A stretch of 64,000 nucleotides of DNA from Novimethylophilus kurashikiensis (lineage in GTDB: Bacteria > Pseudomonadota > Gammaproteobacteria > Burkholderiales > Methylophilaceae). The first letter of the stretch is position 1. Every line of letters begins with the position of its first letter. Location: positions 558,001-622,000 of the forward strand of contig NZ_BDOQ01000003.1 in NCBI RefSeq assembly GCF_003112435.1, written 5' to 3'. The translations under genes and the position numbers were made by a program. Positions 1,416 through 26,617 of the stretch are shown one piece after another. A model generated the notes under the pieces. The model was not told the origin of the DNA and did not search any database. It saw only the letters and a list, made by a program, of their open reading frames with translations.

Positions 1416-2261
1416 TCAACCGGCGGTAAAGTTCTCTGCCACCTCTTCTTCAAACTCTTCCATCCCGTTGAGGCTGATGCCCAGCTCTTCGACGGCCAAT
1501 TCCGCACAAGCAGCCCATTCGCGCTCTACCGGCAATTTCTGCATGACATTGTAGATATGGGTTGCTGTTTGCAGCAGGGCGATGATCGTCTTGAATGGAT
1601 GAATAACCGTCGGGACTTCATGGTGATGGCGAATTGCGCCCAGAATGAGGTCGGGGAGGCGCCAATGCTTACCCACCATATACCCCACGACACAATGATC
1701 GGTGTCGTGGCGTTTGTCTTCTTCGACCAGGTCGGGCCACGCTCCGCTCGCCAGACTCTGGCAATAATCGGAGAAACGCTGCATCAACACCGGCACGCCG
1801 CAATCGTGGAAAAGCCCGGCCATATAAGCCTGGTCGGGCGGAATGCTGCAGATGGAATATTGCTTCTTGGCGATAATGGCGGCGATCTGGGCAATATCCC
1901 CGGAACGCTCCCAGAATTTCTCGAATGCTGCGGAATTGCCCCCCAAAGCCTGACGGACGGCGATGCTTTTGACAATATTGACGACCTGCGTCAGGCCTAG
2001 CACATTAATGGCGATTTCCGCGGAATCCACACGCTTGGAAAGGCCGACTGCGGGCGAATTGACGACCTTGAACAAGCCCGCCATCAAGGCAGGGTCTGTC
2101 GCAATGCTAGCTACAATGGCCTTGGCGCTGACCCGGGGCTCATTGGCTAATCGATCGATCTCGATGAGCACCTTGGGCTGGGGTGGCAAGGTGACGCCTT
2201 GGCCGAGTATGGCCTGAACTTCTGCTGGCTCGATTTCTTTGGGTTGGGACGCTACTAGCAT
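1416..2261 (-). CDS. HDOD domain protein (distal paralogue)
   Basis: Protein of 281 aa made almost entirely of one HDOD domain, a signalling domain related to HD phosphohydrolases. Visible are the N-terminal helical part (LPPQPKVLIEIDRLA, DPALMAGLFKVVNSP), the HD pair in GLFHDCGVPVLMQRF, and the downstream DHCVVGYMVGKHWRLP and RHHHE segments. No receiver, GGDEF or membrane segment is present, so it is a stand-alone cytoplasmic protein. It closely resembles the neighbouring HDOD protein along its whole length, pointing to tandem duplication. It is the last gene of a minus-strand run that also holds metH. The target of such single HDOD proteins is not predictable from sequence; roles in motility, stress and second-messenger signalling are known for relatives. 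Confidence 0.9.
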   Translation of the reverse strand: MLVASQPKEIEPAEVQAILGQGVTLPPQPKVLIEIDRLANEPRVSAKAIVASIATDPALMAGLFKVVNSPAVGLSKRVDSAEIAINVLGLTQVVNIVKSIAVRQALGGNSAAFEKFWERSGDIAQIAAIIAKKQYSICSIPPDQAYMAGLFHDCGVPVLMQRFSDYCQSLASGAWPDLVEEDKRHDTDHCVVGYMVGKHWRLPDLILGAIRHHHEVPTVIHPFKTIIALLQTATHIYNVMQKLPVEREWAACAELAVEELGISLNGMEEFEEEVAENFTAG

Positions 2262-2335
2262 GGGGTGGATTGTTACCTGTTATTGCATGCTGAAAGCACT
2301 ATTTAACTAATCCAGGCCGGTTTTGTCCACCTTCA

Positions 2336-3193
2336 TTATCCGCCCAGGGTAAATGTCTCCAACGCATCCTCTTCAAACTCGAGCAAGCCGTCTTCGGGAA
2401 TCCCGAGTTCTTCGATCACGTTGCGCCAATTGTCTTCCCAGACTATTTCTTGCGGCAGCTTCATCATCAGGTTGTACAAGTGCGTTGCCATTTGCAGCAT
2501 GGCCACCATAGTGATGGCCGGGTGCGCCACCGACCAGATTTCGTGATGGAAACGTACCGATCGAAGAATAAAATCCGGCAGGCGCCAGTGCTTACCGACC
2601 AGATAGCCCACCACGCAATGATCGGTGTTGAACAGCCTGTCCTCGGCGTCGAGCTCCGGCCAGTGTTCGAGATTCTGGCTATCGAGCGCCTTGCAATAAT
2701 TCGGGAAGCGCTGCATCAGGACAGGGACACCGCAATCATGAAACAGCCCGGCCATATAGGCCTGATCGGGGAAGATATTGCACACCGAGACCTGTTTCTT
2801 GGCGATGATGGCCGCAAGTTTCGCGATATCGCCTGAGCGCTCCCAAAACTTCTCGTAGGCAAGGGATTTACCGCCCAGCGCCTGGCGGATGGCGATGCTC
2901 TTGAGCAAATTGGTAATTTGCTTGAGTCCCAACAACGTCACCGCCGTCTCGGCAGAATCGATGCGCTTTGAGAGCCCCATAGCGGGCGAATTCACCACCT
3001 TGAAGACACTCGCCAGCAACGCCGGGTCCTTGGCGATCACCTTGGCCACCGCCTTTACGCTCACATTAGGCTGGCTGGCAAGTTCATCGAGCTCCATCAG
3101 CACCTTGGGCTGAGACGGAATAGCAATGCCCTGCTCGAGAATCGCCTTGATCTCCGGCCCTTCCAGCTCTTTTTGCGCCGATTTCGTTACCAT
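2336..3193 (-). CDS. HDOD domain protein (proximal paralogue)
   Basis: Protein of 285 aa, a second copy of the same HDOD architecture: PSQPKVLMELDELA, DPALLASVFKVVNSP, then GLFHDCGVPVLMQRF and NTDHCVVGYLVGKHWRLP. Like its neighbour it ends in an acidic tail (LLEFEEDALETFTLGG). The start at 3193 has a good ribosome site (AAGGA, about 7 nt upstream). It begins 24 nt after the metH stop, so co-transcription with metH is likely. The stretch EKFWERSGDIA plus AAIIAKKQ is shared with the paralogue. Function is inferred only as signalling. Confidence 0.9.
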   Translation of the reverse strand: MVTKSAQKELEGPEIKAILEQGIAIPSQPKVLMELDELASQPNVSVKAVAKVIAKDPALLASVFKVVNSPAMGLSKRIDSAETAVTLLGLKQITNLLKSIAIRQALGGKSLAYEKFWERSGDIAKLAAIIAKKQVSVCNIFPDQAYMAGLFHDCGVPVLMQRFPNYCKALDSQNLEHWPELDAEDRLFNTDHCVVGYLVGKHWRLPDFILRSVRFHHEIWSVAHPAITMVAMLQMATHLYNLMMKLPQEIVWEDNWRNVIEELGIPEDGLLEFEEDALETFTLGG

Positions 3194-24449: not shown

Positions 24450-25961
24450 ATGAAAAACGATTACCTGGAAAAAATCCTGACCGCCCGCGTCTACGACGTT
24501 GCGGTGGAAACCCCGCTGGAAGAGGCTTCCAATCTGTCGCGCCGCATCAACAACCGCATCCTGTTGAAGCGCGAAGACATGCAGCCGGTGTTTTCGTTCA
24601 AGATTCGCGGCGCGTACAACAAAATGGCCAAGCTCACCGAAGCGCAGCGTAAGCGCGGCGTGATCTGCGCCTCGGCCGGCAACCATGCGCAAGGCGTGGC
24701 GCTTTCTGCCAAAAAACTGGGTTGTCGCGCCGTCATCGTGATGCCGACCACCACGCCGCAAATCAAGGTCGATGCCGTAGCGCGACGCGGCGGAGAAGTC
24801 GTGCTCGCAGGCGACTCCTACGACGAAGCCAGCGCGCATGCCCACATGCTGGAAAAGCGCGAAAAGCTGACCTATGTGCATCCGTTCGACGACCCGGAAG
24901 TGATTGCCGGGCAGGGCACCATCGGCATGGAAATCCTGCGCCAGCATCCCGATCCCATCCATGCGGTGTTTTGCTGCGTGGGGGGCGGCGGCCTGATCTC
25001 GGGGGTGGCGGCTTACATCAAGCGCCTGCGCCCAGAGATCAAGATCATCGGCGTGGAAGCGACTGACGCCGATGCGATGAACCGCTCTCTCAATGCCGGT
25101 AAGCGCGTTCAGCTCGACCAGGTCGGCCTGTTTGCCGACGGTGCCGCGGTCAAGCTGGTAGGCGAGGAGACTTTCCGGCTCTGCCAGGAATACGTGGACG
25201 AGATGATCCTGGTCGATACCGATGAAATCTGCGCCGCGATCAAGGATGTGTTCGAGGACACCCGCTCCATCCTGGAACCGGCCGGCGCACTCGCCATTGC
25301 CGGCGCCAAGGAATACGCCAAGCGCCACAAGCTCAAGGACAAGACGCTGATCGCCGTCGCCTCGGGCGCTAACATGAATTTCGACCGCCTGCGCCATGTA
25401 GCCGAACGCGCCGAACTGGGCGAACAGCGCGAGGCGGTGCTGGCGGTGACGATCCCCGAAACGCCGGGCAGCTTCAAGAAGTTCTGCGCTTTGCTGGGCT
25501 CGCGCAACATCACAGAATTCAACTACCGCTATTCCGATGCCACCGCCGCGCACGTCTTTGCCGGTGTACAGGTTTCCAATCGTGCCGAAGCCGCCAAGAT
25601 CGTGGAAAGCCTGAAAAAGCATGATCTCGCCGCCATCGATCTCACCGACGACGAAATGGCCAAGCTACACATCCGGCATTTGGTCGGCGGTCACGCGCCG
25701 GGGGTCACGGATGAGCTGATCTACCGCTTCGAATTCCCCGAACGCCCGGGCGCCTTGATGCGCTTCCTGGATAGCATGAGTGCGGGCTGGAACATCAGCC
25801 TGTTCCACTACCGCAATCATGGCGCGGATTACGGTCGCGTACTGGTCGGCATGCAGGTGCCGAAAGGGGAGAAAAAAGCCTTCCAGGAATTCCTGGACAA
25901 GCTGGGCTATATCTACTGGGACGAAAGCAAGAACCCGGCGTACAAACTCTTCCTGGGTTAA
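24450..25961 (+). CDS. ilvA: Biosynthetic threonine ammonia-lyase
   Basis: PLP enzyme converting threonine to 2-oxobutanoate and ammonia, the first step to isoleucine. It is 503 aa. The catalytic domain carries the PLP lysine in FSFKIRGAYNKM, CASAGNHAQGVA, the phosphate-binding GGGGLISGVAAY and SGANMNFDRLRH. The C-terminus has two ACT-like regulatory units (IPETPGSFKKFCALLG near 335 and FPERPGALMRFLDSMS near 430), as in the isoleucine-inhibited long form. A TATAAT lies at 24408-24413 without a well-spaced minus-35. Confidence 0.97.
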   Translation: MKNDYLEKILTARVYDVAVETPLEEASNLSRRINNRILLKREDMQPVFSFKIRGAYNKMAKLTEAQRKRGVICASAGNHAQGVALSAKKLGCRAVIVMPTTTPQIKVDAVARRGGEVVLAGDSYDEASAHAHMLEKREKLTYVHPFDDPEVIAGQGTIGMEILRQHPDPIHAVFCCVGGGGLISGVAAYIKRLRPEIKIIGVEATDADAMNRSLNAGKRVQLDQVGLFADGAAVKLVGEETFRLCQEYVDEMILVDTDEICAAIKDVFEDTRSILEPAGALAIAGAKEYAKRHKLKDKTLIAVASGANMNFDRLRHVAERAELGEQREAVLAVTIPETPGSFKKFCALLGSRNITEFNYRYSDATAAHVFAGVQVSNRAEAAKIVESLKKHDLAAIDLTDDEMAKLHIRHLVGGHAPGVTDELIYRFEFPERPGALMRFLDSMSAGWNISLFHYRNHGADYGRVLVGMQVPKGEKKAFQEFLDKLGYIYWDESKNPAYKLFLG

Positions 25962-25966
25962 GGGAC

Positions 25967-26067
25967 TGTAGCGCAGGCGGCCTCGCCTGCAGCAACGGTC
26001 GTATTGAGGACGATTGGCTAGAATGAATCGGCTTACTTTGAATGCAGGCAAGGCCTTCTGCGCTAGA
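25967..26067. repeat. Inverted pair of REP-like palindromic elements
   Basis: Left unit 25967-25991 starts TGTAGCGCAG and contains the perfect hairpin GCAGGCG-GCCT-CGCCTGC. The right unit 26043-26067, read on the minus strand, starts TCTAGCGCAG and contains GGCCTTGCCTGCA; I count 21 of 25 positions identical to the left unit. The two face each other across about 51 bp. A TAG-type head plus a GC-rich palindrome in inverted pairs is the layout of REP/REPIN elements. The right unit's CTA supplies the stop codon of the PNPOx-like gene. Confidence 0.7.
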
Positions 26068-26617
26068 GTTCGCCGCCCTCGAAAATGCCTGTGGGTTTGC
26101 CGTCCAGGCTGACCTGGTTCTTCTTTTCCCAATACTCCGCAATCCCGTCTGGGCCTTTCTTGTCGGCCCAGCCGATCAACTCCTGGCGCTGGCCCTTGAA
26201 GTCGAACAATGGCACCGCCATGCCGCACGAAGTCTGCACCAGCTCGATATCCAAAATGAAAATCTGCCGAGCGCCAGGCAGGTCGCCGAAATGCGAAAGC
26301 CATGCCGACCAGTCTTCTTCCCGTGGATGAATAACCCGCGCCTTGCCGTACAACCGCAGGATCATGGGGCGCCCGGTAAAGGCGCAGAACATCAAGGTCA
26401 TGCGGCCGTTTTCGAGTACATGCGCCGCCGTTTCGTTGCCGCTGCCCGTGACATTCAGCCAGACCACAGTCTTGGGACCTAACACCCGCAGAGTATCCAG
26501 CCCCTTGGGCGACACATTCACATGCCCTTCCGCAGGCGCCGAGGCCACAAAGAACATGTTTTGCTCCCAGATGAAACGGGTCAGATCGGGCGTTAACTCA
26601 CTATACCGCTGACCCAT
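26063..26617 (-). CDS. Pyridoxamine 5'-phosphate oxidase-like flavin protein
   Basis: Protein of 184 aa of the FMN-binding split-barrel superfamily. Visible are FIWEQNMFFVASAPAEGHVNVSPKG, the segment VVWLNVTGSGNETAAHVLENGRMTLMF (phosphate-binding region), and RPMILRLYGKARVI. The sequence GSGNETAAHV is characteristic of general PNPOx-like proteins and not of PdxH itself, so the substrate is unknown. AAGGGG lies about 6 nt before the ATG. Its stop codon falls inside a REP-like element. It follows the EVE-domain gene by 9 nt. Confidence 0.88.
   Translation of the reverse strand: MGQRYSELTPDLTRFIWEQNMFFVASAPAEGHVNVSPKGLDTLRVLGPKTVVWLNVTGSGNETAAHVLENGRMTLMFCAFTGRPMILRLYGKARVIHPREEDWSAWLSHFGDLPGARQIFILDIELVQTSCGMAVPLFDFKGQRQELIGWADKKGPDGIAEYWEKKNQVSLDGKPTGIFEGGEL

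What the first reader, a model, noticed from the sequence alone, without database searches (positions are those of the whole stretch)
25967..26067. REP-like inverted pair whose right copy supplies a stop codon
Two 25-bp units with a TAG head and GC-rich palindrome face each other after ilvA. The right unit provides the TAG stop of the PNPOx-like gene. REPIN-type elements are mobilised by RAYT transposases; this pair suggests such a family lives in the genome.
Basis: partly seen in the sequence, partly recalled or inferred. Interest (0 to 1): 0.6.

Follow-up and report, generated by a model that had tools for sequence, protein, structure and literature searches.

The report
Orphan REPIN repeat in a methylotroph
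The two facing repeats after ilvA are one worn copy of a small family of bacterial hopping hairpins (about 50 units here) whose usual transposase is not detectable in this genome, while in one related genome that transposase sits, bracketed by the same repeats, inside a DNA-repair gene.

Summary
An exact 23-bp GTAG unit (25968-25990) and a degenerate inverted partner (26044-26066) lie 53 bp apart between convergent ilvA and a PNPOx-like gene, whose TAG stop (26063-26065, minus strand) lies in the right unit's head. The genome holds 49 units at 3 mismatches or fewer (reversed-pattern control 0). They form 18 inverted pairs, all with GTAG ends outward, plus 16 singles. This is a REPIN population of the known GTAG superfamily. 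GTAG repeats supplying TAG stops is already published. The predicted RAYT gene flanked by the unit was not found: Y1_Tnp, REP_Tyr_transpos, a RAYT profile from related genomes and one RAYT sequence gave no credible hit. In one relative (G011) a RAYT above the NCBIfam cut-off is flanked by the same repeat family, in frame inside the linker of a family-4 uracil-DNA glycosylase gene. The window's own genome, and a third REP-rich genome, carry a single REP in that same linker; 28 other relatives examined do not. Most likely the window pair is an old REPIN made by a RAYT now lost or not assembled. Ordinary for the window; the udg link is the interesting lead.

The parts
24450..25961 (+). ilvA-like threonine ammonia-lyase (503 aa), left convergent gene
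   Evidence: ORF; Pfam PALP 1e-85 and Thr_dehydrat_C 2.3e-52
25968..25990 (+). left REP unit, exact family consensus GTAGCGCAGGCGGCCTCGCCTGC
   Evidence: one of 16 exact copies in the genome
25991..26043 (.). 53-bp spacer of the REPIN-like pair
26044..26066 (-). right REP unit, degenerate (CTAGCGCAGAAGGCCTTGCCTGC, 4 mismatches), inverted, GTAG-equivalent end outward
26063..26065 (-). TAG stop codon of the PNPOx-like gene, located in the head of the right REP unit
26063..26617 (-). PNPOx-like gene (184 aa), right convergent gene
   Evidence: ORF; Pfam PNPOx_N 5.3e-13; homologues align over residues 1-180 and two annotated ones are 181 and 183 aa long, so the REP sits at the natural gene end

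Best explanation
The pair is an ageing REPIN of a GTAG-superfamily REP family (GTAGCGCAGGCGGCCTCGCCTGC). Such elements are copied as single-stranded hairpins by a RAYT (REP-associated tyrosine transposase), which recognises the palindrome and cleaves at the GTAG end (established for E. coli TnpAREP; inferred here). This copy landed between two convergent genes and survived because it abuts both gene ends without breaking either; its right head happens to supply the PNPOx-like gene's TAG. In this genome the family now looks orphaned: no RAYT is detectable, and the window pair has decayed (right head G to C, half of the right hairpin's stem lost). The cognate RAYT is probably of the type found in relative G011, nested in frame and REP-bracketed in the linker of a family-4 uracil-DNA glycosylase gene. 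Shown: copies, geometry, gene-end placement, absence of RAYT hits, the G011 arrangement. Inferred: mobilisation, loss of the RAYT, cognate relationship. When transcribed, the pair would form a long hairpin at the 3' ends of both mRNAs, with unproven effect.
For: 49 units at 3 mismatches or fewer, 16 exact, reversed control 0. 18 inverted outward pairs with gaps of 11-56 bp and no direct or inward pairs, against about 0.0007 expected partners per unit within 100 bp. 15 of 51 heads lie 0-10 nt after a same-strand stop of a frame of 100 or more codons, against 2.1% of random positions. No own-genome hit for PF01797, NF047646 or RAYT profile A1 at E up to 10, and only 14.7 bits with a stop for the G011 RAYT; the same kinds of search do find RAYTs in relatives. 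G011 RAYT: NF047646 82.4 bits, over the cut-off of 80, with same-family REPs on both sides. REP in the own udg linker.
Against: No movement was shown and no empty site was compared at the ilvA-PNPOx locus. The assembly has 32 contigs, so a RAYT in a gap cannot be excluded. The udg genes carrying REPs are not each other's nearest relatives (3 changes on the tree), so a shared ancestral RAYT in udg is not demonstrated.
Confidence: 0.8

Rival explanations
1. The family is still active here, copied by a RAYT that was missed because it lies in an assembly gap or is too divergent for the models.
For: Sixteen exact copies, including several perfect pairs (C3:719174, C4:41911, C19:229441, C20:39244), suggest recent copying. 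The genome is in 32 contigs.
Against: Completeness is given as 100%. Four searches gave nothing credible, although the same kinds of search detect distant RAYTs in related genomes.
Confidence: 0.2
2. The window pair is two independent single REP insertions facing each other, not one REPIN.
For: The spacer is long (53 bp), the right unit is degenerate while the left is exact, and the left unit lacks the common AT tail.
Against: The orientation is that of all 18 pairs in the genome, another pair has a 56-bp spacer, and chance pairing is about 0.0007 per unit.
Confidence: 0.15
3. The pair is kept as a bidirectional terminator or mRNA-stabilising hairpin for the convergent genes rather than as a mobile element.
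For: RNA fold of -56.2 kcal/mol, z -6.15; placement right after both gene ends.
Against: There is no U-tract next to the hairpin. The same sequence recurs at dozens of unrelated sites. The right unit's own stem is half broken. Gene-end placement is expected from tolerance alone.
Confidence: 0.1

Closest known systems
GTAG-tagged REP superfamily (PMC3733652)
   Same: GTAG head, GC-rich stem-loop of about 23 bp, dimers with GTAG ends outward, gene 3' end placement, TAG supplied as stop codon, some copies in frame inside repair genes
   Different: I did not match this sequence to one of the numbered GTAG families; the paper's main text has no occurrence of words starting with Methyl, Burkholderia or Nitros, nor of uracil or glycosylase
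REPINs (PMC3116915, PMC8049555)
   Same: two inverted REPs with a short spacer, dispersed as a unit
   Different: small population (18 pairs), no RAYT detected in the genome; REPINs in RAYT-less genomes are known from E. coli (PMC8049555)
RAYT / TnpAREP (NCBIfam NF047646; PDB 4er8)
   Same: G011 RAYT domain scores 82.4 bits against NF047646, has MPNHVH and YCAYVRQNPVKA motifs, and is flanked by REPs
   Different: it is encoded in frame inside a family-4 uracil-DNA glycosylase ORF, not as a stand-alone gene; not present in the window's genome

Membership tests
GTAG REP superfamily | GTAG motif at one end of a GC-rich palindrome | tested here: met
   left unit and 16 exact genome copies; the right unit has CTAG
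GTAG REP superfamily | many dispersed, mostly extragenic copies | tested here: met
   49 units at 3 mismatches or fewer on nine contigs, strongly enriched just after gene stops
REPIN | two REPs in inverted orientation, GTAG ends outward, short spacer, recurring as a unit | tested here: met
   18 such pairs, no other pair type
REPIN-RAYT system | a RAYT gene in the same genome, flanked by the same REP | tested here: not met
   no credible hit in G000; assembly gaps remain
REPIN-RAYT system | a RAYT flanked by the same REP family in a relative | tested here: met
   G011:C57 (L129), REPs at 2086-/2125+ and 2746-/2785+ around the Y1_Tnp domain
REPIN-RAYT system | REP bound and cleaved by the RAYT; transposition | not testable with these tools
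   needs biochemistry
RAYT (NF047646) | score above the curated cut-off | tested here: met
   P0002 (G011) 82.4 against 80 bits

The most novel reading that the evidence does not exclude
The linker of the family-4 uracil-DNA glycosylase gene is a recurrent home for this REP family's RAYT. The transposase is carried in frame as an internal domain of a repair enzyme (still encoded in G011), and in this genome and G025 it has dropped out, leaving a translated REP scar.
Probability: 0.25. Interest if true: 0.65.

Novelty: new member of a known kind. Interest (0 to 1): 0.35.

Why it matters
The window pair is an ordinary REPIN, but it leads to a system useful for an open question: how REPIN populations persist or fade once their RAYT is gone, and what the domesticated RAYT does. 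Three related genomes carry the same REP family, and in all three the REP, or the REP-bracketed RAYT, lies in the same linker of a uracil-DNA glycosylase. That links a RAYT physically to a DNA-repair protein, in line with the earlier remark (PMC3733652) that intragenic REPs favour repair genes.

Tried and rejected
Y1_Tnp hits in G100 (= G025) as a candidate RAYT: C244 is a 266-aa transposase of the longer type with no REP of this family within 1.5 kb, C152 is an IS200-like remnant, C256 a 354-aa protein. RAYTs of other relatives (L079, L081, L083, L084, L089, L093, L097) have other GTAG repeats next to them and none of this family within 1.5 kb, so they are not the cognate enzyme. TAG stop supply as a special function: 5 of 51 by the 150-codon criterion (one of these is a spurious overlapping frame) against 5.7% background, so incidental. 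Common descent of the udg insertions: not supported by the UDG tree, and flanks of the G000 and G025 insertions do not align convincingly. Uneven REP density as a sign of a mixed bin: several REP-free contigs have atypical composition (C8, C10, C12) but others are typical (C18, C22), so this was left open. Papers joining RAYT and uracil-DNA glycosylase: none relevant.

Full report
Observation. The sequence at 25960-26072 is as described, with small corrections. The left unit (25968-25990, plus) is GTAGCGCAGGCGGCCTCGCCTGC. The right unit (26044-26066, minus) reads CTAGCGCAGAAGGCCTTGCCTGC, four mismatches from the left one. The inverted repeat extends to 27 nt at 85% complementarity. ilvA stops with TAA at 25959-25961, six bases before the left unit. 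The convergent PNPOx-like gene (26063-26617, minus; PNPOx_N 5.3e-13) stops with the TAG that is part of the right unit's head. Homologues of the PNPOx-like protein align over residues 1-180 of 184, and two annotated ones are 183 and 181 aa long, so the repeat sits at the natural gene end and adds or trims only a few residues.

Copy number. The window lies in a 3.69-Mb genome of 32 contigs. The 23-mer occurs 16 times exactly and 49 times with up to three mismatches; the reversed pattern occurs 0 times. Allowing degenerate partners, 18 pairs exist, all inverted with GTAG ends outward and gaps of 11-56 bp (most 21-32), plus 16 single units; no direct or inward pairs were found. The chance of a partner within 100 bp is about 0.0007 per unit. 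The window pair has one of the longest spacers and one of the most decayed partners.

Placement. Of 51 units, 15 have their head 0-10 nt after the stop of a same-strand frame of 100 or more codons (29%), against 2.1% of random positions in the same sequence. The head's TAG itself ends a frame of 150 or more codons in 5 of 51 (one of them a spurious overlapping frame), against 5.7% of all NTAG words, so stop supply is an incidental result of landing at gene ends. Di Nocera and colleagues already state that GTAG REP termini often provide the TAG stop to flanking ORFs, that REPs lie mostly between convergent and unidirectional ORFs, and that intragenic REPs favour repair genes (PMC3733652).

RAYT search. 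In the own genome, Pfam Y1_Tnp, NCBIfam REP_Tyr_transpos and a profile of ten RAYTs from related genomes (A1) gave no match at E up to 10. The G011 RAYT sequence gave only a 14.7-bit match with an internal stop. Y1_Tnp and the profile find RAYTs in related genomes, and several of those have other GTAG repeats next to them. RAYT-less genomes that keep REPINs are known in E. coli (PMC8049555).

Relatives. The family is most likely Methylophilaceae: G025 shares contigs with an uncultured Methylobacillus MAG and G027 with a Methylophilaceae MAG. Only 6 of 187 family genomes carry the unit at two mismatches or fewer: G000 (43), G025 (35), G011 (20, variant with GCGTCC), G022 (7, variant with GCGCCC), G027 (1) and G008 (1). 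In G011, same-family REPs bracket a Y1_Tnp domain at C57 (L129). The ORF (L129:1467-2936, minus, 489 aa) is a family-4 uracil-DNA glycosylase (TIGR00758 210 bits) whose N-terminal linker holds the RAYT domain in frame (NF047646 82.4 bits, cut-off 80; Y1_Tnp 1.2e-7), with translated REPs (AGGDACA, QAPSPAS) on both sides. Its nearest solved structure by sequence is E. coli TnpArep, 4er8 (E 0.0012).

The udg link. In the own genome the orthologous gene (C19:58392-59183), between the same neighbours (a GNAT acetyltransferase gene before it and a lemA-like gene after it), carries one exact REP in frame in the same linker (SVAQAASPAA). G025 also has one exact REP in its udg linker (VAQAASPAD). None of the other 28 relatives examined has this REP there. 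Taking 49 units in 3.69 Mb, a hit in a given 200-bp linker has a chance of roughly 0.003 per genome (my estimate). The UDG tree does not group G000, G025 and G011 (three changes; G025 is a long branch, so its place is unsure), so the site was either hit repeatedly or inherited with many losses; flanking DNA does not settle it.

Interpretation. The window pair is an ageing REPIN of a known kind. I rate 'REPIN family' as near certain, 'RAYT absent from this genome' as likely but limited by assembly gaps, and 'G011-type RAYT is the cognate enzyme' as probable, since it is the only RAYT found next to this REP family. A role of the pair in mRNA ends is possible (RNA fold -56.2 kcal/mol, z -6.15) but untested, and there is no U-tract for intrinsic termination. 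Single-strand cleavage at GTAG by RAYT is taken from the E. coli work cited in PMC3733652.

Noticed in passing
L129 (G011:C57) 1467-2936, minus strand: 489-aa ORF joins a family-4 uracil-DNA glycosylase with an in-frame RAYT domain in its linker, bracketed by two REP pairs of the window's family; no paper pairing RAYT and uracil-DNA glycosylase was found in the library.
   Followed up: partly
L019:1501-1523 (G000:C19:58512-58534) and L057:2114-2136 (G025): Exact REP copies in frame in the linker of the udg gene in two further genomes, the same linker that holds the RAYT in G011; the three udg genes are not a clade.
   Followed up: partly
G000 contigs C1, C2, C3, C7, C9, C18, C19, C20: REP units are unevenly spread: 8 in the 42-kb C20 and 12 in the first 90 kb of C1, but 1 in 515-kb C2 and none in C7, C9 or C18; some REP-free contigs have atypical composition.
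   Followed up: partly
L079, L081, L083, L084, L089, L093, L097: RAYTs of related genomes with different GTAG palindromes next to them (for example GTAGGAGCGACGCCCTCGTCGC, GTAGGGTGGGCAACTCGTTGCCC), apparently one REP type per RAYT.
   Followed up: no
L096 about 1360-1600 (G025 C152): IS200/IS605-like remnant: a few codons of transposase between CCCCCGGCTTTGCCGGGGG-type hairpins, resembling a MITE.
   Followed up: no
L057, udg linker of G025: Three tandem copies of a CAPKEVPLG-like peptide just before the REP-encoded stretch in the udg linker.
   Followed up: no
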